Virus record (IMG/VR): IMGVR_UViG_3300008050_007455
Coordinates: 1 to 64,000 of that record
Length of the DNA stretch: 64,000 bases
Direction: 5' to 3' (one strand)
Source: a virus
Part shown: one piece after another, positions 10,505 through 57,428 of the stretch
Numbering within the stretch: the first letter of the stretch is position 1
How the letters are laid out: each line of letters begins with the position of its first letter
The notes under the pieces: generated by a model
Told to the model about the DNA's origin: nothing
The model's database searches: none
Seen by the model: only the letters and a program-made list of their open reading frames with translations
Translations under genes and position numbers: made by a program

Positions 10505-10505
10505 A

Positions 10506-25284: not shown

Positions 25285-25895
25285 TTAGGAATGAAATAGG
25301 TTTTAATATTAGTATCAAAATATTGATGTTTTAAATGTTGGTTATAATCATTTGACACTGGAATTTCTATGGGTGTTATATCGAATGATGGTTTTAAAAT
25401 GTCATAAGATTGTTTTGCTATATTATTAACTACCCCACCATTTGGGTTATTGAAAAATGAATATATTCCCTTAGGTTTTAATAAGTTTTTAACATTTACA
25501 TCAAATTCTTTTTGAGATTCTAACCAAGTATCAAAATAAATGCCATCAAATTTAGGTAAATATTTTATTACTTCCTGCCAAGGTTTAAATATAACCTTTA
25601 CATTTTCCTTTTTCAACCACCCATCTTTAATCATTTTTTCTTGTACATCAGGGTGTGATTCAATTATCCAATGGTTTTTAATAAGTGTATTATAATTTTG
25701 AATATAATTGTCAATAAAACCTAACCCAAACCCAATATTAAGAATATCTCCCCCATTTTTGCAAATTTCAATAGCACTATGTTTCATGATATTTTTTTCC
25801 CAACCCATCATAATGGCACTTCCATTAGAATCTAATAAAAGATTATCATCTGTATAGGTTAACTTTTCATTGTGATAATCAGGATTAATATTCAT
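25269..25895 (-). CDS. RMT2/guanidinoacetate N-methyltransferase-like enzyme
   Basis: 208 residues. MMGWEKNIMKHSAIEICKNG followed by GGDILNIGFGLGFID (SAM motif I, about 48-62), HWIIESHPDVQEKM and FDGIYFDTW is the typical order of guanidinoacetate N-methyltransferase and fungal/plant RMT2 arginine delta-N-methyltransferase. The substrate is probably a guanidino group (an arginine in a protein, or a small molecule). Tight overlap with the clamp-loader gene (1 base). Confidence 0.8.
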   Translation of the reverse strand: MNINPDYHNEKLTYTDDNLLLDSNGSAIMMGWEKNIMKHSAIEICKNGGDILNIGFGLGFIDNYIQNYNTLIKNHWIIESHPDVQEKMIKDGWLKKENVKVIFKPWQEVIKYLPKFDGIYFDTWLESQKEFDVNVKNLLKPKGIYSFFNNPNGGVVNNIAKQSYDILKPSFDITPIEIPVSNDYNQHLKHQYFDTNIKTYFIPKCQLK

Positions 25896-26815
25896 TATAA
25901 ACTAATTAATTGATTTATTAAAGCCATGCAATTTATTTCCTTATCAATTCTAAAATTAGATTGATATGAATATTCATTAATATAATATGCTACCATCCCT
26001 TCTTTACCAGGAGCAAATTTACTAGCATTATTATAAAGATAACGATATAACTCTTCAAAATCTTGAACATTAGCATCTGCTATAATTTGCCTAATACCTT
26101 TCCATGATTTTTTACCTACTAATTCCTTAAGCACTTGAGTCATATAATTAGATGATACAAGTACTGATTTGTCTATTTGAAGATATCTATCATTGGCTCC
26201 CCCATCTAAAATAGATAATTGAATTGTATTAAGACATTTACGTAAATCTGGGTAGAATTGATTAACTATAGTTTTTAAATCCTCTATTTCAAATGAACAA
26301 CTTTCTTCACCCATAACCCAAGCAAGGTGTTTTGCAACATCTGATTTTGTTGGGGGAATAACTTTTAATGTTTGACATCTTGACTGTAAAGGATCAATAA
26401 TACGTTCTACATAATTACAAGTTAAGATAAACCTAGTAGTACGTGAAAACGTTTCAATGACATTACGGAGAGAAGCTTGCGCTTGTATAGTAAGAAAATC
26501 AGCTTCATCCAAAATGACCACTTTAAGTGGTTTAAAACTAGCTGATGATGCAAATCCTGACACTTTATCTCTAATCGTTTCAATACCACGTTCATCTGAG
26601 GCATTAATATAAAGATGCTCACAATCAAGATTTTTTACTATTATTTTTGCTAGTGTAGTTTTTCCGGTTCCACTTGGACCATAGAAAATTAAATTTTGTA
26701 TATCATTTTGATCTAAATATTGAGTAATACTCTTCTTGATATGTTCATTCCCAACATACCCATCTAATGTATTTGGTCTATAACGCTCAACTAATAAACT
26801 ATGTTCCATAACCAT
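25895..26815 (-). CDS. 44: Clamp-loader large subunit, T4 gp44-like AAA+ ATPase
   Basis: 306 residues (T4 gp44 is 319). Walker A GPSGTGKTTLAK (about 45-56), Walker B VVILDEADFL (about 98-107), sensor 1 RFILTCNY and the arginine-finger motif LQSRCQ. With gp62 it forms the pentamer that opens and loads the gp45 clamp. ATG GTT ATG offers two starts; the first is kept. AAAAGTTAT lies upstream of the ATG. Confidence 0.95.
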   Translation of the reverse strand: MVMEHSLLVERYRPNTLDGYVGNEHIKKSITQYLDQNDIQNLIFYGPSGTGKTTLAKIIVKNLDCEHLYINASDERGIETIRDKVSGFASSASFKPLKVVILDEADFLTIQAQASLRNVIETFSRTTRFILTCNYVERIIDPLQSRCQTLKVIPPTKSDVAKHLAWVMGEESCSFEIEDLKTIVNQFYPDLRKCLNTIQLSILDGGANDRYLQIDKSVLVSSNYMTQVLKELVGKKSWKGIRQIIADANVQDFEELYRYLYNNASKFAPGKEGMVAYYINEYSYQSNFRIDKEINCMALINQLISL

Positions 26816-32258: not shown

Positions 32259-33191
32259 TTAAAATTTAAAAAACATTTCTTTATAAGGGTTTAAATTTAA
32301 AGTCCACCCTAAATCATTATAAAATCCTTCTAGTTTATTAAGTAATATTGATTCAAAAATCTTCTTCCTATCTGCGTTTTGCTCAATGAATTTGTGGATT
32401 TTTTCAGGTAAATCCCACTCTAAAAAAGCAAGGGCATCAATTTGATATGGGTTAGGTTTCAAATAAATCCATTTAATTTTATCACCTTGACCAATTTGAC
32501 TGTGTGATTTATTTAAACCCCAAAAATTAAGTAAATCATTATATCTAATAACTGCTCTTACAGCTGCTGGGGCTCCTTTAGCTACTACAGTAAACATTTC
32601 ACCCGCTCTTGCTTTTCGTTCAGTATATTTATTTAATGTTTTTACTGATGTTGGATTACCTAATTCTGTAAGAGGAATAGTACCATCTAATATCTGAGTT
32701 TTAAATTCCTTTAATCTTTTATCTATTTCACTTTGTTCTTCTCCTTTTAAAACATCAACTAAAGTTTTATGAAAAAACTTACCTAACACAGGTGGAAAAT
32801 TTGCTTTTTTAAATTCAAGACCTTTAACATCAAGTGATTCTTTTACAATTCCTTCCTGTTTAGTAATCCATTGGGCATATCTTCTTGTTGCTCTAAAATA
32901 AGCTGATCTAATAACACATTCAGTTTTCATTTCTAATCTATGTTGGCCCTTAGCATTAAAACAATCTGTAGCTAAATCACTATAGGAATCAGTAATAATA
33001 TCTTGATACTTTAAAGCAGCTTCTTCTAAAATATTATCCTTTTCCTCACTTGACATTTCTTCAAAGTTAGGGTATAAATGTCTAAGTAAAGGTTCAGCAT
33101 GTATATAAATTGAATCTGTGTCAGAATAAGCTACATAATTTGTATCTTCAGGATCACAAATCCACCAAGGAGTATCTTCTAAATGTTTCAT
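32259..33191 (-). CDS. 43: DNA polymerase family B, C-terminal part (T4 gp43-like)
   Basis: 310 residues. The catalytic motif C VAYSDTDSIYIHAE lies at about residues 17-30, so this ORF has the second catalytic Asp pair and the thumb. The thumb region ends with WTLNLNPYKEMFFKF, and LEWDLPEKIHKFIEQNADRK resembles the clamp-binding end of gp43. It continues the ORF 33188-34870, overlapping it by 4 bases (ATGA). The two must associate to form a working polymerase, unless the split is a sequencing frameshift. Confidence 0.9.
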   Translation of the reverse strand: MKHLEDTPWWICDPEDTNYVAYSDTDSIYIHAEPLLRHLYPNFEEMSSEEKDNILEEAALKYQDIITDSYSDLATDCFNAKGQHRLEMKTECVIRSAYFRATRRYAQWITKQEGIVKESLDVKGLEFKKANFPPVLGKFFHKTLVDVLKGEEQSEIDKRLKEFKTQILDGTIPLTELGNPTSVKTLNKYTERKARAGEMFTVVAKGAPAAVRAVIRYNDLLNFWGLNKSHSQIGQGDKIKWIYLKPNPYQIDALAFLEWDLPEKIHKFIEQNADRKKIFESILLNKLEGFYNDLGWTLNLNPYKEMFFKF

Positions 33192-34870
33192 AATTCTACT
33201 TCATTTTTCATTACTTTATTCATGTGTCTGTTAGCAGCCAATGCAGATTCTTGTATAATACGTTGTCCACTAAGCGTTATAGCTTCAGATAATATAACAT
33301 TCCCATAACGGAATGATCCCAGTGCTGTTGCACCATACAACGAATTAAGTAAAATCTTCATTGTATATTGTTTCATGTGAAATGTAGCACCTAATTCATC
33401 ATTCCCGGATTTAAATGCTTTTTTCATTTCATTTTTATATAAAACTCTTTCATCAAACCACTTTTTTAATATAGTTGATAATACTGATTCACGATTTGTA
33501 TTAAATAAAACCCCATTAGCTGATATAGATAATTCATTTTGTTCTACCATAGCTACTAATCTACCAGCATTAACTTTAGTTCTACTGCGTTTGATATTTT
33601 CAACTATAAATTCTTCATCAGGATCTTTACGTTTTAAATCATTTAATCCTAAACGATTATTTCTATCATCAGCATCTATAATTCTTCCAACCATAGTTTC
33701 TTTACCAATGTTAATAGTCATAATAATTGAAGGATATAGTGAAGTTAAATCCTCATCAAATACATAATTATAAATTCCAGCTTTAGGGCAGAATAAATAA
33801 CCACCAGCATAATTCTTTTTAGATAAAGGATTACGATCTTTAGCAGGTGGTACTATTTTTTTACTTAATAAATAAGCTGAAATAGCTCCATCTTGAGTTT
33901 TAGTATTTGCATATACTTCACTATAATTGTGTTTACCTTTGTGAGCCAAATTCTTTACTAGTGATAGATACTCTAACTTTTCATCTAATACTTTTAAAAT
34001 CTCAACATCCCTAAAGTTATACTGAATGAATTTAAGAGGATCATCATCAAATAATTTATCTAAATTACCATCATATTCAATTTTATTTAATCCAGCATAT
34101 TTTTCACCAATAGCATCTAGTTTAAATGAAGGTTCATCTTTCCAACTAAATTTCTTATGCAATCTCATATAATCTAAAGACTCAACTCCTGCAATTTGTA
34201 TATATTGATCTTTAAACCAAGGTGTTTCTCGAACATAACCTATTGGAGATAAATAACGTGCAACCTCTTGTCCTAACACATTACACATTCTGTAATATAA
34301 GTAGGGAATATCAAAATAATCACTATTCCACCCTACTACAATGTCAGGATCAATTTCTCTAAATCGTTCTAGAAATTTAAGTAATAATTCTTCCTCAGTT
34401 TTACAAGGAATAATTTCTTTAGTTTTTGCTTTTGTTCTTTTAAGGTTAGATTTAGGATCTAAAATTAAAATAGCCCATTCATCTACTTGTTTATCATACC
34501 AAGCAATTGATGTTACTTTTTTAGGGGCTGATTTGATATAATCTTCTGTAAGAGCATCCCCCATTTCAGTCTCAATATCAAAAAATAATTCTCTTTGAGT
34601 CTGTGAGGGTTCATCATTTATCCCATATTTTTCAACTAGAAATTTTTGATATGGAGTCATATCATGGAAATGAAGATTGTAATTATCTGATTTCCAATTA
34701 GATACTTTCTTTAAAGACTCTCCATTTAGGCCAATATGTGTAGCTTGTGAGTCATCACATTCAATATAAGCTTGATTAACCCATTCAACTTTTTGATAAC
34801 CCTCATCATCCCAAAGGTGAATTAGGAATTCATTTCCTTTTTTCCTTTGTGCAAAACATTTTTTATACAA
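33188..34870 (-). CDS. 43: DNA polymerase family B, N-terminal part (T4 gp43-like)
   Basis: 560 residues. Exonuclease motifs: FFDIETEMG (ExoI), VVGWNSDYFDIPY (ExoII) and a YNFRDVEILKVLDEK ExoIII region. Polymerase motif A is DEDLTSLYPSIIMTINIG and motif B is KILLNSLYGATA. The ORF stops shortly after motif B; motif C is in the next ORF. The only plausible start is a TTG at 34868-34870 (no in-frame ATG nearby), preceded by AAAAGTT. Together the two ORFs total about 870 residues, like T4 gp43. Confidence 0.93.
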   Translation of the reverse strand: MYKKCFAQRKKGNEFLIHLWDDEGYQKVEWVNQAYIECDDSQATHIGLNGESLKKVSNWKSDNYNLHFHDMTPYQKFLVEKYGINDEPSQTQRELFFDIETEMGDALTEDYIKSAPKKVTSIAWYDKQVDEWAILILDPKSNLKRTKAKTKEIIPCKTEEELLLKFLERFREIDPDIVVGWNSDYFDIPYLYYRMCNVLGQEVARYLSPIGYVRETPWFKDQYIQIAGVESLDYMRLHKKFSWKDEPSFKLDAIGEKYAGLNKIEYDGNLDKLFDDDPLKFIQYNFRDVEILKVLDEKLEYLSLVKNLAHKGKHNYSEVYANTKTQDGAISAYLLSKKIVPPAKDRNPLSKKNYAGGYLFCPKAGIYNYVFDEDLTSLYPSIIMTINIGKETMVGRIIDADDRNNRLGLNDLKRKDPDEEFIVENIKRSRTKVNAGRLVAMVEQNELSISANGVLFNTNRESVLSTILKKWFDERVLYKNEMKKAFKSGNDELGATFHMKQYTMKILLNSLYGATALGSFRYGNVILSEAITLSGQRIIQESALAANRHMNKVMKNEVEL

Positions 34871-36121: not shown

Positions 36122-36154
36122 TTCAATATACTAATTAATTTGGATAACTCCAAA
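36122..36154 (-). promoter_or_regulatory. Promoter of folE
   Basis: TTTGG at -33 and TATATTGAA at -7 with 20 nt between TTG and the box; ATAAAAAGTTAT lies between it and the folE ATG. Confidence 0.75.
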
Positions 36155-36166
36155 CTAAATTTAAAT

Positions 36167-36409
36167 TTATGCATGAGGATCTGGATCAGTCCACTCTGGT
36201 GTAGCCATTATTGTTAATATTTCTGAATGTGTATAAGGCCCATCGTATGAACTTAAATTAGCAACAAATGAAGGTTCACTACCATCCCATTTAATAACGG
36301 TTTGGGTTTCATCAAGTGACAATCTTAGTGTTTCTTCGGATGTTTCTAAAACTTCATTGAAGTCAACTAATCCTACTTCTGCTATGTTTATAATAATATA
36401 TGTTTTCAT
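36167..36409 (-). CDS. Hypothetical protein, 80 aa, next to LamG tail gene
   Basis: 80 acidic residues: MKTYIIINIAEVGLVDFNEV, then GSEPSFVANLSSYDGPYTHS and a WTDPDPHA end. Beta-rich. It overlaps the LamG gene upstream by 4 bases and is probably a fibre accessory or chaperone, judged only by position. Confidence 0.65.
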   Translation of the reverse strand: MKTYIIINIAEVGLVDFNEVLETSEETLRLSLDETQTVIKWDGSEPSFVANLSSYDGPYTHSEILTIMATPEWTDPDPHA

Positions 36410-38055: not shown

Positions 38056-38062
38056 TTTTTGA

Positions 38063-38072
38063 TTATAAATAT
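38063..38072 (-). promoter_or_regulatory. Candidate late promoter element ATATTTATAA
   Basis: ATATTTATAA, 7 nt before the ATG of the LamG gene; the context ATATTTATAATCAAAAA closely matches the other LamG gene at 2484. Confidence 0.35.
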
Positions 38073-38578
38073 TAGAGGGAATAGATAGCAGGCAAATTTC
38101 TACAATAGCCTTTATCATTATCCATTCCAAACCCAACTAACCACTCATCCCCAATTTCAAAAGCATTAAAAAATGGTGCTTTTGGTTTTGGGCTTGTTTT
38201 TCTAGTAATTAAACTTACAATTGAAATTGACTTTGGATGTTTTACCTCTAAATATTCTATAACAGCCGCCATAGTATTTCCTGTGTCGTAAATATCATCT
38301 ACAATATAAACATGCTTACCTTTTATTGGGGTTTCTAAATCTTTAGTGATTTGGATATCACCCTGTTTATTCTTGCTTAAATACGATTTAACGCGCATAA
38401 AATCACACTCCACATCAATTGGCATAGCCCGCACTAAATCGCTGTAAAATGCAAAACAACCATTAAGTAAGCCAACCATTACCACGGGGGTACGGTCATC
38501 TCTATGCTCAGCTGATATTTGTTTTGCTACTATTTTTGTTTGGATATCTATATCCCTAGATCCTATTAACTCTATCAT
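38072..38578 (-). CDS. Purine phosphoribosyltransferase (HPRT-like)
   Basis: 168 residues from the ATG at 38578; an ATG at 38590 is also possible. VVMVGLLNGCFAFYSDLVRA (pyrophosphate loop region) and the PRPP motif VYIVDDIYDTGNTM at about 92-105 are as in hypoxanthine/guanine phosphoribosyltransferases; LVGFGMDNDKGYCRNLPAIY is the typical C-terminal dimer/base-binding end. It makes a nucleoside monophosphate from a purine-type base and PRPP. In this cluster it could salvage guanine, or act on a 7-deazaguanine base, which would be new. Confidence 0.87.
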   Translation of the reverse strand: MIELIGSRDIDIQTKIVAKQISAEHRDDRTPVVMVGLLNGCFAFYSDLVRAMPIDVECDFMRVKSYLSKNKQGDIQITKDLETPIKGKHVYIVDDIYDTGNTMAAVIEYLEVKHPKSISIVSLITRKTSPKPKAPFFNAFEIGDEWLVGFGMDNDKGYCRNLPAIYSL

Positions 38579-38580
38579 AT

Positions 38581-39426
38581 TTAAACACATCTTTCTGTAT
38601 TAAAAGCCATAATGTGGCTTCTACCTGTAAATCTCCATCCTTTATCTCTTACAAAATTCATTACTACCGGATAAGATTCCATTAAACTTTCTCTATCATC
38701 CCCAGCAGGCATAGCCCATATTTTAGTTGGAAGATAATTCATTAATTCTTCTTTTGTAGGTTGGTCTAAACCATAAAAATTACAAAAACCCTTTTCAAGT
38801 AATTTATCTGCGAGTTGGTCAATAAATTCTTCTACTTCTTCTACCATAGATAATTTATTATCTAATACAGGTTTAAGATGAAAATCAGAGTGATGTATAA
38901 TTGAATCTGCAATAGCTTCAACATTTAACCTTAAACGATTATGAGTTTTAACCATTTTTTCATCTGTTACCTTTCCCGAAGGAGTGAGAGCACCCACAAC
39001 GGGGACACTATTACTAAACTTAGGACTAATGCTAAGCAAATTAATAGGATAATCGGTAGGAAGAAAATGAGATCCCTCAGTTTCAATAGTAATAAAGATA
39101 TTGTTTTCATAGGCAAAGTGTGTTAACTCATTAACTAATTTAGGATGCATTGTTGGTGATCCCCCAGTTAACATCATTTCCTTAATATGAGGATTTTCCT
39201 CATACATTTTGACAATATCATTAAAATTAAATATTCCCTTTTCTGGGTGGATACTAGTGTACCAACTATCGCACCATCCTCCCTCACCAAAATAACATCT
39301 ATGGGTGCAACCTGTTGTTCTAACTACAATAGTAGGGTAACCTTGACGGCTACCCTCACTTTGTACTGCAGTATAAATTTCTAATACTGGTAGTCTTTTA
39401 CTATAATCTTCTATTCTTTTTAACAT
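38581..39426 (-). CDS. queE: 7-carboxy-7-deazaguanine synthase (QueE), radical SAM
   Basis: 281 residues. LEIYTAVQSEGSRQGYPTIV is the QueE start; GCTHRCYFGEGGWCDSWYTS holds three Cys for the Fe-S cluster, but spaced Cx3Cx7C and not Cx3Cx2C. MLTGGSPTMHPKLVNELTHF is the SAM-binding GGxP segment. It converts 6-carboxytetrahydropterin to 7-carboxy-7-deazaguanine. Longer than common QueE (about 210-250), with a C-terminal extension of about 50 residues. Separated by 2 bases from the phosphoribosyltransferase. Confidence 0.9.
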   Translation of the reverse strand: MLKRIEDYSKRLPVLEIYTAVQSEGSRQGYPTIVVRTTGCTHRCYFGEGGWCDSWYTSIHPEKGIFNFNDIVKMYEENPHIKEMMLTGGSPTMHPKLVNELTHFAYENNIFITIETEGSHFLPTDYPINLLSISPKFSNSVPVVGALTPSGKVTDEKMVKTHNRLRLNVEAIADSIIHHSDFHLKPVLDNKLSMVEEVEEFIDQLADKLLEKGFCNFYGLDQPTKEELMNYLPTKIWAMPAGDDRESLMESYPVVMNFVRDKGWRFTGRSHIMAFNTERCV

Positions 39427-39486
39427 ATAATTTTTTTAAGTGGTTTTTTATTCACTATAATACGCAGCATTTTCCAATGCTCCATA

Positions 39487-39978
39487 TTATTCTTCGTATA
39501 TTGATGAATTTTTGTCAGCTTCCCAACATTCTACTTTTACACATTTACATCTACCTCCATCGGTAAGTGCTAAACGTTCATTAAATTTATCATAGACTAA
39601 TTTAGCACATGATTCTGCTCCCATTTTATCCATAATTCTTAAAGCACAAAGTCCTTCCATAGCAGCTCCCTCGAAAAAATCTAAATATGGATCATCTTTT
39701 TCAATTAATAATGTATGATCCCACATAAAATCCATCCATGTTTTTAAACCATTACCAGGTGTAGGTTCTGCATTTATTGCTTTAAATCCTCCATAATCAA
39801 CAATCCAATTCATATCATCCAAACCATCATTGTCATCTAAAGGAGTGTTTGATTCAAACCATACTTTAAATTTTAGAGCATATCCATGTAAAAGTTTACA
39901 ATGTGAGTGTTGTGCTTTGTGCTGTCTAAGAGCTACCGAGTAGTTATCGAATACTTTTGTTGATTTATATTTACCCAT
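39487..39978 (-). CDS. queD: 6-carboxytetrahydropterin synthase (QueD)
   Basis: 163 residues. HSHCKLLHGYALKFKVWFE (about 22-40) has the catalytic Cys and His zinc ligands in the HGY variant found in one QueD subfamily; FMWDHTLLIEKDDP carries the catalytic Asp-His pair; CVKVECWEADKNSSIYE is the terminal segment with the catalytic Glu. It turns dihydroneopterin triphosphate (from FolE) into 6-carboxytetrahydropterin. Overlaps thioredoxin by 8 bases. Confidence 0.9.
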   Translation of the reverse strand: MGKYKSTKVFDNYSVALRQHKAQHSHCKLLHGYALKFKVWFESNTPLDDNDGLDDMNWIVDYGGFKAINAEPTPGNGLKTWMDFMWDHTLLIEKDDPYLDFFEGAAMEGLCALRIMDKMGAESCAKLVYDKFNERLALTDGGRCKCVKVECWEADKNSSIYEE

Positions 39979-40228
39979 TGTACCAATCTAAAATTTGTTG
40001 TTCTGAAAGTTGTCCTACTTTTCTTGAAATTTCCTTACCATCTAAATCTGTTAAGACCATAGTAGGAACACTTTTAATATTATACTGTTGAGGTAGTTGA
40101 GCATCATAATCAACATTTACTTTTCTAACATTAATTCTACCTTGTTTCCCCATTTGCTCAATTAGGGGAGTCATTACTTTACAAGGCCCACACCAAGGAG
40201 CGCTGAAATATAAAATTCCTTTATTCAT
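39971..40228 (-). CDS. Thioredoxin
   Basis: 85 residues, a minimal thioredoxin. Active site APWCGPCKVM at about 9-18, cis-Pro in SVPTMVL at about 52-58, and the usual C-terminal helix. It reduces disulfides in the cytoplasm; the ribonucleotide reductase NrdA of this phage ends CVSCEG and needs such a donor. Slightly shorter than host thioredoxins (about 105). Confidence 0.93.
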   Translation of the reverse strand: MNKGILYFSAPWCGPCKVMTPLIEQMGKQGRINVRKVNVDYDAQLPQQYNIKSVPTMVLTDLDGKEISRKVGQLSEQQILDWYNG

Positions 40229-40245
40229 ATTTTATTATTTTTAAT

Positions 40246-40524
40246 TTATACTAATTCTTCGATTATACCTATTACTTCACTCAATATAAGTAAAATAGTT
40301 GCAAAAACCAAATTAAAGGGAAGGAAGATGTATCCTAATATCCTAACCCCAGATTTGATAAAACTTATTTTTTGATGTAAGTAAGCATCAGGTAATTCTT
40401 TAATATTAGCCCCTGCTAATTGACTAACTATCTTATTTACTTCTTTTTCCACTTTTGGATCATTTAATGGTACAGAAGTGTTAATTGTGGATCTTTTAGC
40501 GTCCATTATTTCTCTATCACTCAT
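40246..40524 (-). CDS. Small membrane-associated protein, 92 aa
   Basis: 92 residues. A polar N-terminal 55 residues is followed by a hydrophobic C-terminal hairpin (about 58-88: SGVRILGYIFLPFNLVFATI, then LLILSEVIGIIEEL). Unrecognised. It lies between queC and thioredoxin, 2 bases after queC. Confidence 0.6.
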   Translation of the reverse strand: MSDREIMDAKRSTINTSVPLNDPKVEKEVNKIVSQLAGANIKELPDAYLHQKISFIKSGVRILGYIFLPFNLVFATILLILSEVIGIIEELV

Positions 40525-40526
40525 AA

Positions 40527-41375
40527 TTATTTAATATTTAATTGTTCCTTCTCATATTCTGAAAGAACTTGTTCGACATATATTTTAGCTGTTTCAAAAT
40601 CAACAGGACCTGTTTCATCAGCATATTGTACTGGGTCAGGTCTACCCAATTTTATAAAGGCTTCAACACGTTCTACAGATGATGCTGATTTATAATCAGA
40701 CCACCCTTCAGGTGTTGGTTTATATGAAGTATTTGTTCTAGCATAAACTTCGTCAAAATCTATTTTTAATTTTTCACATAATTTTTCCCCATCTTGTAAA
40801 ATAGTAAATTTATCACCTTTAAGATAAGGTGTATAGTACCCTACTCTTTCAGCATCCCAATTACCCTCTCTAAAAGCATGATCATCGGCATCTCTAAATT
40901 CTTGCCTACAATCAGGATAGATATCATGATCACCTGCATGAATCCCTAAAGCAATTGATGTTGATTCTTCTGTTCTATTTGCTACGGATAATGCTACTGC
41001 TTGAGTAATTGATGAGAATATTTTATTTCTATTAGGCACTACTGTGGCTTTCATATTTTCAGCAGCATAATGTCCTTCTGGGACTTCATCTCCCCCTTCA
41101 ACTAAAGCTGAGTCGAGAAGTTCTACTAGACCATATAATGTAATTACTTGAAAAGTTACATTATGACCATTTCTTTTTAAATAATCTACTAATGCTCTTG
41201 CTCTTTTGAGTTCAACCTTATGTTTTTGGCCATAATCAAAAGACAAAGCTGTTACAGTTTGAAATTTATCAAGACATTTAAGTAATAATGTACTTGAATC
41301 CATACCACCTGAAAGTGATACTACTGCATGTTTTGGACGTTGTGAGTCTTTAAAATTTAATTCCAATTGTGTCAT
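40527..41375 (-). CDS. queC: QueC-like 7-cyano-7-deazaguanine synthase lacking the zinc cysteines
   Basis: 282 residues. PP-loop VVSLSGGMDSSTLL (about 19-32), LSFDYGQKHKVEL, VVPNRNKIFSSI and IALGIHAGDHDIYPDCR, all QueC hallmarks. The C-terminal region, usually WSCY...CGxCxxC, reads NTSYKPTPEGWSDYKSASS followed by VERVEAFIKLGRPDP: all four zinc-binding Cys are absent. It should adenylate 7-carboxy-7-deazaguanine and give preQ0, or stop at the amide. Longer than bacterial QueC (about 230). Confidence 0.9.
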   Translation of the reverse strand: MTQLELNFKDSQRPKHAVVSLSGGMDSSTLLLKCLDKFQTVTALSFDYGQKHKVELKRARALVDYLKRNGHNVTFQVITLYGLVELLDSALVEGGDEVPEGHYAAENMKATVVPNRNKIFSSITQAVALSVANRTEESTSIALGIHAGDHDIYPDCRQEFRDADDHAFREGNWDAERVGYYTPYLKGDKFTILQDGEKLCEKLKIDFDEVYARTNTSYKPTPEGWSDYKSASSVERVEAFIKLGRPDPVQYADETGPVDFETAKIYVEQVLSEYEKEQLNIK

Positions 41376-41406
41376 TTTTATTTATTTATATTTGCCAGGT
41401 ATTTTA

Positions 41407-41424
41407 AGCGTATAGGCTAACGCT
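41407..41424. repeat. Inverted repeat AGCGT/ACGCT upstream of queC
   Basis: A 5-bp stem with an 8-nt loop in the 50-base queC leader. No T-run. It does not match the preQ1 riboswitch classes I can recall. Possibly part of a leader structure; weak evidence. Confidence 0.3.
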
Positions 41425-41425
41425 A

Positions 41426-41647
41426 TTACATATCAATTAATCTATGTTGTTTTTGTTCAGTAACCACATCAAAATGAGTACCTTGTATTTTTACACTTCC
41501 TCCCTGTTTGAGAATTTTTCTAAATAATCCTTCTTCTCTATCAGTCCAAAATTCACTAAGGGCAATAACTTCATCTTTACTTGCAGGTCTTTTATTTTTA
41601 TTAATAAATATTTTTTGGTTAGACCTTATTGATTGTTTTTTTAACAT
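41426..41647 (-). CDS. Hypothetical basic protein, 73 aa
   Basis: 73 residues, basic (LKKQSIRSNQKIFINKNKRP), then EVIALSEFWTDREEGLFRKI and a beta end (GTHFDVVTEQKQHR). No family recognised. It lies between queC and the dpdA-like gene in the presumed modification operon. Confidence 0.65.
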   Translation of the reverse strand: MLKKQSIRSNQKIFINKNKRPASKDEVIALSEFWTDREEGLFRKILKQGGSVKIQGTHFDVVTEQKQHRLIDM

Positions 41648-41651
41648 ATCT

Positions 41652-41846
41652 TTATTCTTCTACAAATTCAACATCACCATAATCATCAATTGGTTTATCT
41701 CTTACTAATTCCCAATCGGCATCATCTATAATTTCTTGTTGGATATCTTCATCGCCTGTTTTCCATTGTGCTAGTTGTTCATCTGTTAACACATACTCTT
41801 CCCATCTGTAGTTTGCGTAATTTACTGTTCTTGTTAATTTTGCCAT
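41652..41846 (-). CDS. Hypothetical acidic protein, 64 aa
   Basis: 64 residues, acidic, Trp/Tyr rich at the start (MAKLTRTVNYANYRWEEYVL), with EIIDDADWELV in the middle. No recognised family. Separated by 4 bases from the gene downstream and 1 base from that upstream. Confidence 0.65.
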   Translation of the reverse strand: MAKLTRTVNYANYRWEEYVLTDEQLAQWKTGDEDIQQEIIDDADWELVRDKPIDDYGDVEFVEE

Positions 41847-41847
41847 A

Positions 41848-42027
41848 TTACATGAATTTTGGTATTCTAAATTTTAAAATTGGAGTACCATTAATGGTGG
41901 GTTGACCCATTTCATCAATTCCAATTTCTTTTACTTTTACTGGTTTGTTCCTAAATCTTCCAGTCATTATAGTATCACCTATTTTTATGGGGATTTTGAA
42001 ATAATCTTCTATATATGTTGCTTTCAT
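41848..42027 (-). CDS. Conserved small protein, 59 aa
   Basis: From the ATG at 42027 (an in-frame TTG two codons earlier is rejected). 59 residues: KIPIKIGDTIMTGRFRNKPV, then KVKEIGIDEMGQPTINGTPI. The pattern is a short SH3-like barrel seen in T4-like phage proteins of unknown role. Overlaps the dpdA-like stop. Confidence 0.7.
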   Translation of the reverse strand: MKATYIEDYFKIPIKIGDTIMTGRFRNKPVKVKEIGIDEMGQPTINGTPILKFRIPKFM

Positions 42028-42815
42028 ATGCAATTAATTTTTCTAAATTTATCAATATTATATTCTAATAGATCATAATCAACCTGGCTATCTAACATAT
42101 AGAAATAATCATTCATATTTGCTTTTGGTTTTTTAAATAAACCTGAGTGAGTATATTGAATGTTTTCTAAAGTTGCCATTACGGGGTTTGATGTGTCAAT
42201 TGATTCAATACAATTTATATCTTTATACCACCCAAATTCTTGGGGAACCGCACAACCTAATAAATGAACTCTATCATCTTGTTTTAATTCTCCAGTTTTA
42301 AGTAAAGTAGATATTACAAATAATCTTCCTAAAGCTTTTCCTAAATCTTTGTTGGGGTGAGTACAAATATCATTATAATAATTAGCTCCATAAGAAAAAC
42401 ATATTTTACCATACCCCAAATTTTTATAAGCTTTAACACATTGAGCTGCTTCATGTAGTGTTTTTGCTTGAACTACTGCTACTTTTTCTGTATTTTTGGG
42501 GAAATCATATAAATTCCAAATTTCAGCATTTTGAATTGACTCTATACAGTTTTCCCAAACATCAGGTACTATAAATTCATTAGGTTCTAATTCATTAACC
42601 CAATGTATAAGACGTTCATGTGTATAAGCTTCACCCAATTCATGAAGTGAATTATCCATTATAATATAACGACCCTGTCTTTTAGATTCTAAAAAATATT
42701 CTAAATAACCAGGTTCTTCATCCAATAAATGAGGAAGACAGTAGTCATAATCATTAAAACGTCTACTATCGTTTAGGAGGCATAAGGGTGTTTCATGACT
42801 TATTTTTATTACCAT
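42024..42815 (-). CDS. DpdA/tRNA-guanine transglycosylase-like base-exchange protein
   Basis: 263 residues with a TIM-barrel-like pattern. YIIMDNSLHELGEAYTHERL (about 51-70), EFIVPDVWEN, VAVVQAKTLHEAAQCVKAY, ICFSYG, HLLGCAVPQEFGWY and ESIDTSNPV follow the order of TGT/DpdA enzymes, with candidate catalytic Asp in MDN, PDV and IDTSNP. It lacks the TGT C-terminal zinc site. DpdA exchanges guanine in DNA for a 7-deazaguanine. The context (FolE, QueD, QueE, QueC in the same 7 kb) supports this more than the sequence alone. Confidence 0.65.
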   Translation of the reverse strand: MVIKISHETPLCLLNDSRRFNDYDYCLPHLLDEEPGYLEYFLESKRQGRYIIMDNSLHELGEAYTHERLIHWVNELEPNEFIVPDVWENCIESIQNAEIWNLYDFPKNTEKVAVVQAKTLHEAAQCVKAYKNLGYGKICFSYGANYYNDICTHPNKDLGKALGRLFVISTLLKTGELKQDDRVHLLGCAVPQEFGWYKDINCIESIDTSNPVMATLENIQYTHSGLFKKPKANMNDYFYMLDSQVDYDLLEYNIDKFRKINCI

Positions 42816-43736: not shown

Positions 43737-43769
43737 GTAAATATACGAACCCTCTTTCGCTTCTCCAAA
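43737..43769 (-). promoter_or_regulatory. Strict-class promoter
   Basis: TTTGGAGAAGC, 20 nt between TTG and TATATTTAC, with an A-tract (TAAAAAAA) just upstream. The terminator at 43787-43811 lies right behind it, the same arrangement as at 5719-5786. Confidence 0.82.
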
Positions 43770-51207: not shown

Positions 51208-52572
51208 TTAAGAATTTAGTTCGAAAAATTTATTTTTCAACATTTTTTTATCAAATGTATCAAAATCACTATAACCTTGATTTTGTTGAGGTTGTGAATC
51301 ATCCTCATAATCCTCAGCATTATAATCATGTACCTCAAAATGACCTGTTGCGGTATCTGCTTTTACCCCAAATGTTAAACCATCCATCCCGTATCTATTT
51401 TTCATAATGTGAAATCTACCTGTACCATTAACTTTATCTTTTGCTTTTCTTGAAAGAGATAGACAAAAATCTGTAATCATAATTTTATCATATGATCCAG
51501 CAGCTTTGTCTCCTTCAATTACATTATCTTTTGCACCTGCACGATTTACTTGAGAAACTGACCAAATAGGTACATTTAATTCACGAGCAAGTCCTTTAGT
51601 GCTTGTATAAATATCATCAATTTCTCCCTTGCGATCAGCTGTTCGTTTTTTTGTTGAAAGAAGATCTACATAATCAATTATAATTAAATCTGCTTTAATC
51701 CCTAAATCTTCTACTTTACGGATATGTGATTCTACTGTTGAGATTGTAGCTCTTCCTGTAGGAAATTCTTTAATAATTAATTCACCAGGTAATTCCGGAA
51801 TAATATCTTCAATTTTATCTCTATTTTTTAATATTTTATCAACTGGTATCTTACTAAAGAAAGCATCATATCTTCTCCCTACATACTGTTCACCTAATTC
51901 TAATGTATAATGTAAAACATTATAACCCATTCTTACAGCATAACCCCCCAAAGCAACTAAACTCCATGATTTACCACCTCCTGGATTACCAAATATAAGA
52001 CCAAAATCTCCATTTCCGAGGCCTCCTTGCAGTATATCATTAACTCTCTCCCAAGGAGTAGCAATAGTTGATCTTGCATCTTCTCTAAACCTTGATTCAA
52101 TATCTTTATTATATTCATGCCCTACATTTTTATCATTTCCTGCTTTTAATGCTGATTCTACCAAATGTTTAATACCATCAAAATCACCAGCTTTAAGTAA
52201 GTCTACACTATTGAGTAGTGCTCTTTTAAGTTGTTGATTTTTACAAAATGTTGAAAACTCTTCTTGAACATACTCTAAATCTTCATCTGATGATTCATAT
52301 GCTGATTTTAATTGTTCTCTTACTGAAAGTTTTAGTACTTCATTTTCTATTTTTTGGAGTTCTACTTTAAGAGTATCCATTGAAGGTGTAGTATGATATT
52401 TGTCATAGTACCTAAGAATTTCTTTGATAATCCATTGGTGGGCTTGGTTATCAAAATATTCATCACTTAAAATATCATGGATATTAGTTAAAAACTCTTT
52501 ATGTGTTAAAAGAGATGATAATATTTTAATTTGGAAATGGTTTCCATATTGGTTTAAACTTGTTAACGTCAT
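51208..52572 (-). CDS. 41: Replicative DNA helicase, T4 gp41/DnaB-like
   Basis: 454 residues. N-terminal helical domain about 1-150, then RecA fold: Walker A FGNPGGGKSWSLVAL (about 194-208), LHYTLELGEQYVGRR, Walker B ADLIIIDYVDLLST (about 290-303) and the VSQVNRAG motif with sensor Gln. It unwinds DNA 5'-3' ahead of the polymerase as a hexamer. The C-terminal 30 residues are acidic (EDYEDDSQPQQNQ). AAAAAGTTAT precedes the ATG. Confidence 0.93.
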   Translation of the reverse strand: MTLTSLNQYGNHFQIKILSSLLTHKEFLTNIHDILSDEYFDNQAHQWIIKEILRYYDKYHTTPSMDTLKVELQKIENEVLKLSVREQLKSAYESSDEDLEYVQEEFSTFCKNQQLKRALLNSVDLLKAGDFDGIKHLVESALKAGNDKNVGHEYNKDIESRFREDARSTIATPWERVNDILQGGLGNGDFGLIFGNPGGGKSWSLVALGGYAVRMGYNVLHYTLELGEQYVGRRYDAFFSKIPVDKILKNRDKIEDIIPELPGELIIKEFPTGRATISTVESHIRKVEDLGIKADLIIIDYVDLLSTKKRTADRKGEIDDIYTSTKGLARELNVPIWSVSQVNRAGAKDNVIEGDKAAGSYDKIMITDFCLSLSRKAKDKVNGTGRFHIMKNRYGMDGLTFGVKADTATGHFEVHDYNAEDYEDDSQPQQNQGYSDFDTFDKKMLKNKFFELNS

Positions 52573-52584: not shown

Positions 52585-53610
52585 TTATAACTTGAATTTT
52601 TCAAAAATATCTTTTACCCAAAAATTTACATTGCGTATCATTCCTCCTAATTTATCTTCATTATAGAATGCCACGAATTGATCAGGAAGATAATTATAAT
52701 CATTAGTATTAACAACCTGAGTTAGATATTTTTTATCATTTTCATCTAGCATAGGATTAGATAAATCCATTATTTTGTAATTTTTTTCTAAATCATCTAT
52801 ATGTTGGATTACTCTGGCATATATAACATTCTCTTTGAATTTAGATTCACAAATACTATAGATATCATCTAATGACATATCTTTCTTACTTAATTCTGGG
52901 AATAGTTTATATAATTTTTTCTCTCCTAATCCTTTTATACCCTTAACACTATCCGAGTTATCACCCATTAATGTTTTATAAAGGATGAAATTGTGAGGTG
53001 ACATTTTAAATTTTTCAGCTACCGTTTCTTTAGTATAAAATTCTTTTTCCATAGGACGATATACAATAACATTGTCATTTATTAGTTGTAAAAAATCTTT
53101 ATCAGAAGAAACAATAAATACTTTATCTTTGGGGGATTGTGGAATAATATCTGATAGGTACGCAATAACATCATCTGCTTCAACTTTAGGGATCCCTATA
53201 GTTTTTACAGGCAATGTTTTTAAATATTGAATAATTCTTACTATTTGATCAACTTTAGCATCATCTTCATCTTCCTTATTATCGAAAGCATCCCAATTAG
53301 TGATTCGTTGTAGATCTCTCCCTGATTTATATTCTGGTAGGAGATTTTTTCTAGCATTAGCTGATCCGGCTCCATCAAATACTATATAAACTTGAGTAGG
53401 ATCAACCCTACGAATCTCAGCACCTAAAGAACGAAAAAAACCACCTAAACCCCCAATATGAACCCCATCTGGATTTACCATATTCATCATTGCGAAGTTT
53501 CTAAAAAATAGATTTAAACCATCTATTACTAGTATTCTTTCTCCTTCTACAGTCTCTTCTCCATGCTCATCAAGATTATTGAGGAGACTTAATAATTCCT
53601 TTTGTTTCAT
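52585..53610 (-). CDS. rnh: RNase H / 5'-3' exonuclease (FEN-1 family, T4 rnh-like)
   Basis: 341 residues. VIDGLNLFFRNF (about 28-39) and YIVFDGAGSANARKNLLPEY (about 81-100), then VEADDVIAYL and IVSSDKDFLQL supply the acidic metal ligands; LMGDNSDSVKGIKGLGEKKL is the helix-hairpin-helix DNA-binding part. It removes RNA primers and 5' flaps at Okazaki fragments. T4 RNase H is 305 residues. Its own promoter lies at 53629-53659. Confidence 0.93.
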   Translation of the reverse strand: MKQKELLSLLNNLDEHGEETVEGERILVIDGLNLFFRNFAMMNMVNPDGVHIGGLGGFFRSLGAEIRRVDPTQVYIVFDGAGSANARKNLLPEYKSGRDLQRITNWDAFDNKEDEDDAKVDQIVRIIQYLKTLPVKTIGIPKVEADDVIAYLSDIIPQSPKDKVFIVSSDKDFLQLINDNVIVYRPMEKEFYTKETVAEKFKMSPHNFILYKTLMGDNSDSVKGIKGLGEKKLYKLFPELSKKDMSLDDIYSICESKFKENVIYARVIQHIDDLEKNYKIMDLSNPMLDENDKKYLTQVVNTNDYNYLPDQFVAFYNEDKLGGMIRNVNFWVKDIFEKFKL

Positions 53611-53662: not shown

Positions 53663-54739
53663 TTATTGTGGCTCGTCTGTATGGGTTGTGATGTCTGTAT
53701 ATGCTTGATCTTCCTCAGCAATTATAAAATCACCACCACCTAGAATTTTTTTCCATTCATCCTTCATTTCTTCTTTATAAGATTTTAATGATTTATCATT
53801 ATCAAGTATAAAGCCATGAGGAGTCATTACAATTTTACCTCTAGTGGTAACACCATTAATATGGTTTTTATCAACTTGTAAATTTACTCTTTTAGCAAAT
53901 TCAACTTGTTTACCATCCTTAATTGCCTTAATTTTTGAAGTTCCAGCTGACATAATATTACCAAATGTTACTACAAATGTAGAATCAAACCACATAGCAT
54001 ATCCTCCTTTATTCATTAATTTAGGTTTACCCATTGGTGATTCTGCTTTTAAAGTCCAAACTTTATTAATACACACAAGTGTATTAGTATATGGGCTGCT
54101 TTCTTTACGTGATAATACTATGCGTTGGTTTACATTATTACCAAATTGGGTGGCCATAGCACCTGCATTCCATTCGTTATTATTTTTATTGGATTTAAGA
54201 GACATTTCACAAGGTATTGACCCTATTGAATCCCATAGGAATAATAAATCATAAGGTAAATTACCTCCTTTTTGCTCATCAACCAAATCTAAAATAAATC
54301 CAGCTACATCTTCAATTGAATTAATTGATTCTCTATCAACATAAATAAAATTACCCTTATAATCTAGAACTTCACCTGTTTCTTCATCAATAACTTCCTC
54401 AACTTCTAATCCCATTTGAATAGCATGCTCCCAATTCCATTTCATCTCTGTAATAATAAATACAGGAAGTACTTTACGTTTTTGGGCTTCAACTGCTGCT
54501 TCTAATAGGGCTGTTGTTTTACCTGTATCTGAGTGGCCTCTAAGTAAAACAATATGTCCCATTGGAATTCCTGGCACTGATGTAATCTCTTGATAAGCTT
54601 TAGAAAGGGGTATCCATTCTTGTTCTTTAAATTTAGCTTTGGATGTTAAACCTTTTTTCTGTTTAAAACCATCTAAATTAAATTTTGATTTTATTTCTGA
54701 GGAGACTGCCTCCGATAGTGATTTTTTCTTTCTGGCCAT
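53663..54739 (-). CDS. uvsX: RecA-like recombinase, T4 UvsX
   Basis: 358 residues (T4 UvsX is 391). Walker A LRGHSDTGKTTALLEAA (about 67-83), FIYVDRESI and PYDLLFLWDSIGSI (Walker B, about 163-176), then the loop region NNEWNAGAMATQFGNNVNQR. It coats ssDNA and drives strand exchange and recombination-dependent replication. The basic N-terminus (MARKKKSLSEAVSSEIKSK) is typical. Directly downstream of gp32. Confidence 0.94.
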   Translation of the reverse strand: MARKKKSLSEAVSSEIKSKFNLDGFKQKKGLTSKAKFKEQEWIPLSKAYQEITSVPGIPMGHIVLLRGHSDTGKTTALLEAAVEAQKRKVLPVFIITEMKWNWEHAIQMGLEVEEVIDEETGEVLDYKGNFIYVDRESINSIEDVAGFILDLVDEQKGGNLPYDLLFLWDSIGSIPCEMSLKSNKNNNEWNAGAMATQFGNNVNQRIVLSRKESSPYTNTLVCINKVWTLKAESPMGKPKLMNKGGYAMWFDSTFVVTFGNIMSAGTSKIKAIKDGKQVEFAKRVNLQVDKNHINGVTTRGKIVMTPHGFILDNDKSLKSYKEEMKDEWKKILGGGDFIIAEEDQAYTDITTHTDEPQ

Positions 54740-54749: not shown

Positions 54750-55592
54750 TTAAAATGGTAAATCATCATCTGATTTTTTATCATCAGAAAATAAATCATC
54801 AAATTGAGCTGCTTTTGTCTTTTTTACATTAGTTGATGTTGTATCTAATGAATAATTAGACTTTTTTTCATCACTATCAAATGCAACCGCAGGCTCTGAA
54901 GAAATAGATCCTTCTTCACCTTCACCCTCTGGTGTTAGAAATTCTTGAAGAGCTTCCTTCATTTCATCATAAGAAAGTGGTTTAAATACCTTCATTGGGT
55001 CAGCTTGATCATTTATTAGTTTTTCAACTAATGCTGCATCTTTATGAATTGGAGATGTTTTAAGTGATGGACCAATTGATGTTTTATTATATGGTGTTCC
55101 AGTTGTTTCTGGTCCTACCGTAGATAATTTAATATCTCTACCACCAGCAATGTCTGTAAAATCACCAATTTCATCATCAGCAGCCATATTTAAAAATTCT
55201 TGATAAACTTCTTTACCAAACTGCCATAATTTAACTCCTTCATCTTCTTGACCACGAACTACTACAGGTGCAAAAATACGAGTTTTTGGGTCTAATTTCT
55301 TAGCTAATCTCCAATTTTCTCTATCATTAGTACCACGAAGTTGTTTAGCAAATTCCATAATTGGATCTTTCTCACCCCAATTTGAAGGAGAAGCCATTAC
55401 TCGTTTACTACCAATTCCATAATAGAATCTCATTTCTGTAAATGGGAAGTCTTTGTTGTATTTGTTAGGTACAACTCTAATTAGTTGTTTACCTACTGAG
55501 GGTTTCCAGAATAGTTGTCTTTGACCACTTCCTGAATTGTTGGCCTGTTTTTGAAAATCATTCAGGCGCTTTTTAATTGCGTTTAAATCCAT
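54750..55592 (-). CDS. 32: Single-stranded DNA-binding protein, T4 gp32-like
   Basis: 280 residues (T4 gp32 is 301). Basic N-terminus for cooperativity (LNAIKKRLNDFQKQANN), OB-fold core with FWKPSVGKQLIRVVPNK and FPFTEMRFYYGIG, and a long acidic C-terminal tail ending FDDLFSDDKKSDDDLPF for protein contacts. The Cys ligands of the T4 gp32 zinc site are not found, as in many marine relatives. It covers ssDNA at forks. Its own promoter is at 55627-55658. Confidence 0.9.
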   Translation of the reverse strand: MDLNAIKKRLNDFQKQANNSGSGQRQLFWKPSVGKQLIRVVPNKYNKDFPFTEMRFYYGIGSKRVMASPSNWGEKDPIMEFAKQLRGTNDRENWRLAKKLDPKTRIFAPVVVRGQEDEGVKLWQFGKEVYQEFLNMAADDEIGDFTDIAGGRDIKLSTVGPETTGTPYNKTSIGPSLKTSPIHKDAALVEKLINDQADPMKVFKPLSYDEMKEALQEFLTPEGEGEEGSISSEPAVAFDSDEKKSNYSLDTTSTNVKKTKAAQFDDLFSDDKKSDDDLPF

Positions 55593-55659: not shown

Positions 55660-56148
55660 CTAAAGTTCAATAATCTTGAAAATCTTTGTTTTGAGTTGCT
55701 TTAACTCATCATGTTGTGTCAACAAAACTGTATTTTTGTAATGCTGCCAATCAATAGGAAATTTAGTATCAACTACTCCCCCATTTAATTTTTTAATTAA
55801 TTCATTTAAGGCATTAATAGTATATAAAGTATTAGTATCTTTTTTCCTATGTACCATTATAGTATTAGTAGGTAAAGTATCTCTATCTAAGTATGCTGTG
55901 TTGCCTTGATCTATGTTGTATGTACAAACATACTCATCATTACTTTTAATATGTAAAACAAATATTTTGTTATACATTATAGAGTAGCTAGATGTTATGT
56001 GGTCTAAAAGGCCATCTAATTCTGCTAAAGTTGTAAATGTGCAAAATAATTTATTGTTCAAATCGCTTATCTTTAAGTTATTCAACTCCTGGAAGTCGTC
56101 TATCTTATACATATTAGCAGATTTATTTAAAATTGTATGTGTTGCCAT
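55660..56148 (-). CDS. Hypothetical protein, 162 aa
   Basis: 162 residues. LFCTFTTLAELDGLLDHITS, IMYNKIFVLHIKSNDEYVCT and TLYTINALNELIKKLNG suggest alternating strands and helices. Similar short proteins lie beside gp32 or UvsX genes in phages of this group, but I know no function. Its 5' end overlaps the family A polymerase gene by 26 bases; an ATG at 56112 would avoid this, but the first ATG has the better A-rich leader. Confidence 0.65.
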   Translation of the reverse strand: MATHTILNKSANMYKIDDFQELNNLKISDLNNKLFCTFTTLAELDGLLDHITSSYSIMYNKIFVLHIKSNDEYVCTYNIDQGNTAYLDRDTLPTNTIMVHRKKDTNTLYTINALNELIKKLNGGVVDTKFPIDWQHYKNTVLLTQHDELKQLKTKIFKIIEL

Positions 56149-57382
56149 AATTGAATTTTATGTTTAATTTATAATCTTTAAATATATTTAATATCTCCTC
56201 AATTTTTCCCCTTTCACTTCTATCTAAATCAAACAAAAAAGAATCATAAGTATATAGTATTAGTTTAGTTTTTGCATTATTTAATATCTTAAATATTTCC
56301 CACAATATACAAATATTATATGAGGTCTCCAAGTTTTGGAGTAAATAATTCAATAGCTTTTGGGGTTTCATATCTTCCAACTCACCCCTATAAAATATTT
56401 TTTTAGAAATAGGACATTCGATGTAACCTTCACTTTGGAAGCGAGCCCACAAGTCATCAGTATATATTTGGACTTTTTTAAAGAACTCTAAATCTTTATA
56501 CTTATCAAATACTCCTCCATATAGTTGTTTAAATGTCAGCTCCTTAGCTTTTTGGTAATCCACACCATACATTTCTGCAAAGGCAGTATGAATATCTTCA
56601 TCACCAAAATCATAGTCGACCAACTTAGCCAAAAGAGTAGGATGATAAGCACCAATGTCAAGCTCAAGCAAGCAATCATTACTTGCGATAAAACTTTCTC
56701 TACTGCCGTTGTCTTTAGGTATTGCGGCATAATTTACTCCTTTGAATTTATTACTTGGTCTTCCTGTGAGGGTTTTGAAGTTGAATTGGGTGTAGACGTA
56801 ATCTCCATCGACATCGTGAAAGTGCGATTGGAATTTTTCTCTATCAATTCGTAAACCACTTCGCTCCACGGCGTTGAATACCACTGAGGCTTTTGTGTTG
56901 TAAAAGTCGTTGATTGGCTCATTTATTTTTAATTTTAAGTTATTAAATAGATTTTCACAATACTCATAATGTTTAACTATAGGTATTATTCTGTTTATAT
57001 CTTTTTTATCACCCATCTTGCTGTAGAAGTAAGAGTGGGTTTGTGTTGTCTCGCGTATATACGTATGAGAATTAAGTGTTATGTCATAAAGAGTTTTTAG
57101 TGGAAAATAATGTAAGAATTCTTTCTTATCACGCACATACAACGCATCATAATTTGATAATATGTGTTTTATATTGTCAATACTAGCATTAATCGTTTCA
57201 CTATGCGAAATGGGCAACATAAATCCTTTCGTTGATACTAACGGACGAATATAAATAGCACAAACTTTATTTTGGGTAGGGTGAATAGTATCATTATATG
57301 GAATTACTTCTACAAATGCTTCCTTATAACCACTTTGCCAAAACCTTTTTATTTGATCCTCAGATTCTACTAACCAAAACAT
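56123..57382 (-). CDS. Compact family A DNA polymerase-like protein
   Basis: 419 residues. N-terminal ~120 residues may be a degenerate exonuclease fold. SVVFNAVERSGLRIDREKF (about 165-183) is the PolA thumb-palm link. LTGRPSNKFKGVNYAAIPK (about 205-223), then LLELDIGAYHPTLLAKL (motif A, catalytic Asp kept), AKELTFKQLYGG (motif B, Lys and Tyr-Gly kept) and LILYTYDSFLFDL (motif C; HDE is replaced by YDS). The order and spacing are those of Pol I/T7 polymerases in a shortened form. It coexists with a complete family B polymerase; a role in repair, priming or lesion bypass is possible. Confidence 0.82.
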   Translation of the reverse strand: MFWLVESEDQIKRFWQSGYKEAFVEVIPYNDTIHPTQNKVCAIYIRPLVSTKGFMLPISHSETINASIDNIKHILSNYDALYVRDKKEFLHYFPLKTLYDITLNSHTYIRETTQTHSYFYSKMGDKKDINRIIPIVKHYEYCENLFNNLKLKINEPINDFYNTKASVVFNAVERSGLRIDREKFQSHFHDVDGDYVYTQFNFKTLTGRPSNKFKGVNYAAIPKDNGSRESFIASNDCLLELDIGAYHPTLLAKLVDYDFGDEDIHTAFAEMYGVDYQKAKELTFKQLYGGVFDKYKDLEFFKKVQIYTDDLWARFQSEGYIECPISKKIFYRGELEDMKPQKLLNYLLQNLETSYNICILWEIFKILNNAKTKLILYTYDSFLFDLDRSERGKIEEILNIFKDYKLNIKFNYGNTYNFK

Positions 57383-57395: not shown

Positions 57396-57428
57396 ATTAA
57401 TATACAAACTAAAAATCAAACAACCAAA
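57396..57428 (-). promoter_or_regulatory. Promoter of the family A polymerase-like gene
   Basis: TTTGG at -33, 20 nt spacer, TATATTAAT at -7, about 13 bases from the ATG at 57382. Confidence 0.75.

What the first reader, a model, noticed from the sequence alone, without database searches (positions are those of the whole stretch)
56123..57382. Compact family A polymerase beside a family B replicase
T4-like phages normally carry only gp43. Here a 419-residue protein has PolA motifs A and B and an altered motif C (YDS in place of HDE), next to gp32 and UvsX and with its own promoter. Asp residues for both metals appear to be kept. A second polymerase of this type may serve recombination-dependent synthesis, repair or incorporation of modified bases.
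Basis: partly seen in the sequence, partly recalled or inferred. Interest (0 to 1): 0.75.

Follow-up and report, generated by a model that had tools for sequence, protein, structure and literature searches.

The report
Phage's second, stripped-down DNA polymerase
A marine bacterial virus carries, beside its main copying enzyme, a small second DNA polymerase related to bacterial Pol I; this enzyme type was first described from genomes in 2024, has never been tested at the bench as far as the papers searched show, and is almost always found with the same small partner gene and the virus's DNA-repair genes.

Summary
Window 56123-57382, on the MINUS strand, encodes a 419-aa family A (Pol I/Klenow) fold polymerase: AlphaFold2 pLDDT 91.8, VIA Z about 26 to Klenow-type chains over the whole length. 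Both metal-binding Asp (D242, D380) are invariant in 123 distinct relatives. The phage also has a family B replicase, split into two ORFs. The protein belongs to divPolA1, a family published in 2024 (Yutin et al., PMC11348598), which includes the Flavobacterium phage immuto homologue matched here at 41% identity. So it is a new member of a known kind. Added here: (1) the sugar-gate Glu710 is His in 123/123 and the triphosphate-binding Arg754 is Tyr in 122/123; (2) 165/166 divPolA1 loci have the same small ORF (orf162) just downstream; (3) in a UvsX-anchored survey 66 of 69 usable loci have divPolA1, and no clear absence was shown in the other 3; (4) a conserved TTTGG-N19-TATATT promoter-like element precedes it and other replication genes; (5) divPolA1 is kept whichever replicase is present. 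Most likely role (inferred): a short-patch, non-proofreading gap-filling polymerase that with the separate 5' nuclease does the job of Pol I. No activity was tested.

The parts
56123..57382 (-). divPolA1: 419-aa compact family A (Klenow-like) DNA polymerase; degenerate exonuclease-like N-terminus, short thumb, intact palm Asp pair
57399..57428 (-). Promoter-like element TTTGG-N19-TATATT upstream of divPolA1, conserved among marine relatives
   Evidence: computational only
55660..56148 (-). orf162: 162-aa protein of unknown function whose start overlaps the divPolA1 3' end by 26 nt; directly downstream in 165 of 166 divPolA1 loci
   Evidence: AF2 model pLDDT 81 with no confident fold match
54750..55592 (-). 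gp32-type single-strand DNA binding protein
   Evidence: (PF08804 3.6e-15)
53663..54739 (-). UvsX/RecA-type recombinase
52585..53610 (-). 5'-3' exonuclease/flap endonuclease of the Pol I N-terminal type
   Evidence: (PF02739 9.7e-34)
51208..52572 (-). DnaB-like replicative helicase (gp41 type)
   Evidence: PF03796; phrog_19 5.9e-84
33188..34870 (-). Family B replicase gp43, first part (560 aa; exonuclease, motif A, fingers)
   Evidence: phrog_262 9e-115
32259..33191 (-). Family B replicase gp43, second part (310 aa, begins just before motif C); ATGA overlap with the first part
   Evidence: phrog_262 3.8e-49
25895..26815 (-). Clamp loader (gp44 type), preceded by the same promoter-like element

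Best explanation
The gene encodes a member of the divPolA1 family: a miniaturised Klenow-like polymerase that has lost proofreading and most of the thumb but keeps the two-metal palm. Shown here by computation: fold, invariant catalytic Asp pair, loss of exonuclease I and II residues, near-universal position at the head of a replication/recombination block, constant association with orf162, coexistence with an independent replicase. Inferred: it is an active, template-dependent DNA polymerase of low processivity. It fills the short gaps left when the phage's separate 5'-3' nuclease removes RNA primers or flaps, so that divPolA1 plus that nuclease together do what bacterial Pol I does in one chain. 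gp32 and perhaps orf162 would bring it to DNA and compensate for the short thumb. The replicase (family B here, family A in immuto) copies the genome.
For: Fold: AF2 pLDDT 91.8, pTM 0.90; Foldseek top hits all Pol I type, best E 1.6e-16; VIA Z 26.3, 386 residues, rmsd 3.3 to M. smegmatis Pol I. Residues in 123 distinct sequences: D242, D380, K280, F284, Y288, Q349 and R208 invariant, N345 in 122. Purifying selection. Exonuclease I and II acidic positions mostly replaced. Synteny polA-orf162-gp32-UvsX-5'nuclease-DnaB across marine, freshwater and jumbo-phage relatives. UvsX-anchored survey: 66 of 69 usable loci have it; in L155, one of the other three, the gene was found elsewhere on its contig. 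Same promoter-like element before divPolA1, gp32, the 5' nuclease and the clamp loader. Replicase differs (split B, intact B, or full-length A in immuto) while divPolA1 stays, which fits a task independent of the replicase.
Against: No biochemical evidence for any activity. Arg754, Glu710 and Glu883 equivalents are all replaced, which in E. coli Pol I would impair or alter nucleotide selection (own knowledge). T4 uses a similar nuclease with gp43 alone, so a second polymerase is not needed for gap filling in principle. A DNA ligase (PF01068) was found in only 1 of 9 relatives searched. Synteny does not separate gap filling from recombination-primed synthesis, because both sets of genes are adjacent.
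Confidence: 0.5

Rival explanations
2. It is a translesion or damage-repair polymerase: non-proofreading, with a remodelled nucleotide-binding pocket that tolerates lesions.
For: Exonuclease loss, His at the Glu710 position and Tyr at the Arg754 position in essentially all members.
Against: Presence in 66 of 69 usable loci of a UvsX-anchored survey with no clear absence shown, and a promoter-like element shared with core replication genes, fit a core replication role better than an optional repair gene.
Confidence: 0.13
3. It is a catalytically weak or inactive scaffold (for example a DNA-end or gp32-binding factor) that keeps the polymerase fold.
For: Three active-site positions important in Pol I are changed.
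Against: D242, D380, K280, F284, Y288 and Q349 are all invariant in 123 sequences, with members down to about 23% identity to the window protein, which a scaffold would not need.
Confidence: 0.08
4. It is a single-subunit RNA polymerase or primer-making enzyme, as proposed by Yutin et al. for the other family, divPolA2.
For: Motif C YDS/YDA resembles T7 RNA polymerase HDS (own knowledge); the Glu710 gate against ribonucleotides is replaced.
Against: The listed Foldseek and VIA matches are Pol I-type DNA polymerases; the N-terminus aligns with the Klenow exonuclease domain, not a promoter-binding domain; position 762 is Phe, not the Tyr of T7 RNA polymerase (own knowledge).
Confidence: 0.05

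Closest known systems
divPolA1 family (Yutin et al. 2024, Virol J 21:200, PMC11348598)
   Same: Homologous over full length to the named members in Flavobacterium phages immuto (41%, E 8e-89); same gene block; conserved palm residues, truncated thumb, inactivated exonuclease; encoded besides a regular polymerase.
   Different: An uncultured marine member with a split family B replicase. The Glu710 to His and Arg754 to Tyr replacements and the orf162 linkage are not mentioned in the text of the paper's section on divPolA1 (its figures could not be seen).
E. coli DNA polymerase I (Klenow fragment)
   Same: Same fold over the whole chain; D705, D882, K758, F762, Y766, N845, Q849 and R668 equivalents.
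   Different: 419 vs 605 aa; exonuclease residues lost; distance from the exonuclease end (E140/D501) to the TGR motif (R208/R668) is 68 vs 167 residues; E710, R754, H881 and E883 replaced; the 5' nuclease is a separate gene.
divPolA2 of barbaviruses (same paper)
   Same: A second, divergent PolA beside a family B replicase.
   Different: divPolA2 has an unrelated N-terminal domain and a variable gene neighbourhood.
T4 gp43/gp32/UvsX/RNase H/gp41 replication set
   Same: All these functions are present around or elsewhere in the window.
   Different: T4 has no family A polymerase (own knowledge); here gp43 is split in two.

Membership tests
divPolA1 (Yutin et al. 2024) | Sequence homology to the published members (MW353175-MW353177) | tested here: met
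   tblastn 40.6% over 99% of the query, E 8e-89
divPolA1 (Yutin et al. 2024) | Palm catalytic residues conserved | tested here: met
   D242 and D380 in 123/123
divPolA1 (Yutin et al. 2024) | 3'-5' exonuclease inactivated, all three catalytic Asp replaced | tested here: inconclusive
   Exo I position 27 never acidic and exo II position Lys/Arg in all; but position 25 is Glu in half of the sequences and exo III has an acidic E140, with alignment uncertain without coordinates
divPolA1 (Yutin et al. 2024) | Truncated thumb | tested here: met
   68 residues between E140 and R208 vs 167 between D501 and R668 in E. coli (E140/D501 pairing approximate); two long helices only in the model there
divPolA1 (Yutin et al. 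2024) | Encoded besides a regular DNA polymerase | tested here: met
   Split family B polymerase at 32259-34870
divPolA1 (Yutin et al. 2024) | Conserved replication genes downstream | tested here: met
   gp32, UvsX, 5' nuclease, DnaB
Family A DNA polymerases | Significant profile match | tested here: met
   None for the window protein in Pfam; PHROG DNA polymerase I 1.4e-5; immuto homologue PF00476 4.6e-11, over the cut-off
Family A DNA polymerases | Klenow-type fold | tested here: met
   VIA Z 26.3 over 386 residues; Foldseek E 1.6e-16; on a predicted model
Family A DNA polymerases | Motif A Asp plus Glu710 gate | tested here: inconclusive
   Asp 123/123, but Glu is His in 123/123
Family A DNA polymerases | Motif B RxxxKxxxF | tested here: inconclusive
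   K and F 123/123, but Arg is Tyr in 122/123
Family A DNA polymerases | DNA polymerase activity | not testable with these tools
   Needs purified protein

The most novel reading that the evidence does not exclude
divPolA1 and orf162 form a dedicated two-subunit polymerase whose remodelled pocket (His for Glu710, Tyr for Arg754) gives it unusual nucleotide choice, for example tolerance of ribonucleotides or of modified or damaged templates, with orf162 standing in for the missing thumb.
Probability: 0.17. Interest if true: 0.68.

Novelty: new member of a known kind. Interest (0 to 1): 0.42.

Why it matters
A large, mostly uncultured phage lineage, partly of Bacteroidota, keeps a second polymerase as a core gene while its main replicase differs between members, so the second enzyme probably does something every replicase needs. 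If it works with the separate 5' nuclease as a taken-apart Pol I, it shows a different division of labour at the phage fork from T4's. The invariant active-site replacements and the near-inseparable partner give two clear bench tests. Isolated members exist (Flavobacterium phages immuto; Microcystis phage Mel-JY01), so these can be done.

Tried and rejected
Plus-strand reading of the interval: full of stops. Direct Pfam and PDB sequence matches: none for the window protein, only marginal with the profile (Taq 0.25), so the fold was used. Generic sigma-70 and terminator scan: no excess over shuffles. Modified-base incorporation: less likely, because the deazaguanine pathway of this phage group includes DpdA, a base-exchange enzyme. 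Dependence on the split gp43: rejected, as relatives with intact gp43 or a family A replicase also carry divPolA1. Loss of divPolA1 in L155: rejected, because its C-terminal part is at the contig start; L149 is cut off by its contig end; L156 was not checked on its whole contig. Function of orf162 by fold: no confident match (best Foldseek E 0.075, VIA Z 6.5 over about half the chain), no PDB sequence match and only one weak PHROG match in one member. The paper's other members LR796625 and MK892584 are not in the collections, so comparison used the immuto phages.

Full report
What is there. The interval 56123-57382 holds one open frame on the minus strand, 419 aa. The opposite strand is full of stops. 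In close relatives the frame evolves under purifying selection (dN/dS 0.11-0.24 in six pairs).

Is it a family A polymerase? Sequence alone is weak: no Pfam or PDB match, PHROG 'DNA polymerase I' at 1.4e-5. Homologues were gathered from phages, viral contigs and genome contigs, and some of these match Pfam DNA_pol_A clearly (immuto 4.6e-11). AlphaFold2 with 50 aligned sequences gave pLDDT 91.8 and pTM 0.90. Foldseek best hits are Pol I-type polymerases (E 1.6e-16). VIA-align 2 gives Z 26.3, rmsd 3.3 over 386 residues against M. smegmatis Pol I, and Z about 26 with 389-393 residues against several chains of Bacillus Pol I large fragment. The whole chain, N-terminus included, aligns with the Klenow architecture.

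Active site. Profile alignment to E. coli Pol I gives R208=R668, D242=D705, H247=E710, Y276=R754, K280=K758, F284=F762, Y288=Y766, N345=N845, Q349=Q849, Y379=H881, D380=D882, S381=E883. Over 123 distinct sequences D242, D380, K280, F284, Y288, Q349 and R208 never vary. H247 is His in all, Y276 is Tyr in 122, position 379 is Tyr or Phe, position 381 is Ala or Ser. The exonuclease I and II positions carry non-acidic residues or Lys/Arg (Glu at position 25 in about half), so proofreading is most likely lost; exonuclease III could not be placed with confidence. The stretch between the exonuclease end and the TGR motif is 68 residues against 167 in E. coli, i.e. a short thumb.

It is already a named family. 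Yutin et al. 2024 (PMC11348598) describe divPolA1 in 14 phages, naming the immuto phages, always in addition to a 'regular' polymerase of family A, B or C, with conserved replication genes downstream, palm residues kept, thumb truncated and exonuclease inactivated. The window protein matches the immuto divPolA1 at 41% over full length and shows the same context. No other paper using the name was found besides its preprint. The finding is therefore a new member of a known family for which no biochemistry was found.

Neighbourhood. In 112 loci found through the polymerase (108 from the viral-contig and phage sets plus 4 from the genome set) the order is a structural gene, a small gene, polA, orf162, gp32, UvsX, 5' nuclease, DnaB, as far as each contig reaches, in some with extra genes between. 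To avoid anchoring on the polymerase itself, 80 loci were fetched with UvsX: 66 carry the polymerase upstream, 3 do not show it within the stretch, 11 are too short. Of the 3, L155 has the polymerase at its contig start, L149 is cut at its end, and L156 shows the same gene layout as L155 but was not checked further. orf162 follows the polymerase in 165 of 166 loci (L186 is the exception) and is seen without it only where the contig begins inside or at orf162. In 50,697 phage records, the same six records carry both. orf162 has no confident structural match.

Replicase. The window's family B polymerase is two ORFs with an ATGA overlap, 560 and 310 aa, split about 20 residues before motif C. The same split is found in several relatives; others have an intact gene. 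Immuto has none detectable, but a full-length 777-aa family A enzyme near FolE and GroEL, as in the window. divPolA1 is present in every case, so its task does not seem to depend on which replicase is used.

Regulation. The generic promoter scan is uninformative. Aligned upstream regions of 18 relatives share only a TGG and a TATATT block. In the window the exact pair TTTGG/TATATT with a free gap of 14-24 occurs 13 times on the coding strand, 12 of them with gap 19, against 5 with other gaps on the other strand. Near matches lie before gp32 and the 5' nuclease, exact ones before the clamp loader and FolE. Upstream of divPolA1 in all loci, 41 of 116 have at most one mismatch against 7 of 580 random stretches. 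It is probably a phage promoter class, not yet tested, and the signal is clearest in the marine clade.

Mechanism (inferred). No proofreading, a short thumb and a position at the head of the ssDNA-binding, recombinase and nuclease block suggest short-patch synthesis. Because the 5' nuclease of the block is the Pol I N-terminal type, the simplest reading is a taken-apart Pol I that finishes lagging-strand fragments (confidence 0.5). D-loop extension with UvsX is the main rival. The active-site replacements keep open an enzyme with unusual nucleotide choice. None of this has been assayed.

Noticed in passing
32259-34870 (-): The family B replicase gp43 is split into two overlapping ORFs (ATGA) about 20 residues before motif C; the same split occurs in several relatives, while in G020 and G021 a single 1087-aa ORF carries an insert of about 200 aa at that point (intein-like, not examined).
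   Followed up: partly
minus strand, e.g. 57399-57428, 43740-43769, 36125-36154, 26816-26845, 10476-10505, 5284-5313: A phage-wide promoter-like element TTTGG-N19-TATATT: 12 exact copies with a 19-base gap on the coding strand.
   Followed up: partly
55660-56148 (-): orf162, a conserved 162-aa protein of unknown function, follows divPolA1 in 165 of 166 loci and is better conserved than the polymerase (53% vs 41% to immuto).
   Followed up: partly
35405-42815 (-): Genes resembling the 7-deazaguanine pathway (GTP cyclohydrolase by Pfam; QueD, QueE, QueC and a DpdA-like protein by resemblance to immuto's annotation), suggesting base-modified phage DNA.
   Followed up: no
L028 20360-21400 (Microcystis phage Mel-JY01): The separate 5' nuclease is annotated 'DNA polymerase I' in this record while the true family A polymerase nearby is 'hypothetical protein'.
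   Followed up: no
L128, L130, L131, L133: Phage contigs of this lineage are binned in Flavobacteriales, Winogradskyella and Flavobacteriaceae metagenome genomes, pointing to Bacteroidota hosts for the marine clade.
   Followed up: no
30653-32254 (-): A Nol-like carbamoyltransferase gene sits directly downstream of the split replicase.
   Followed up: no
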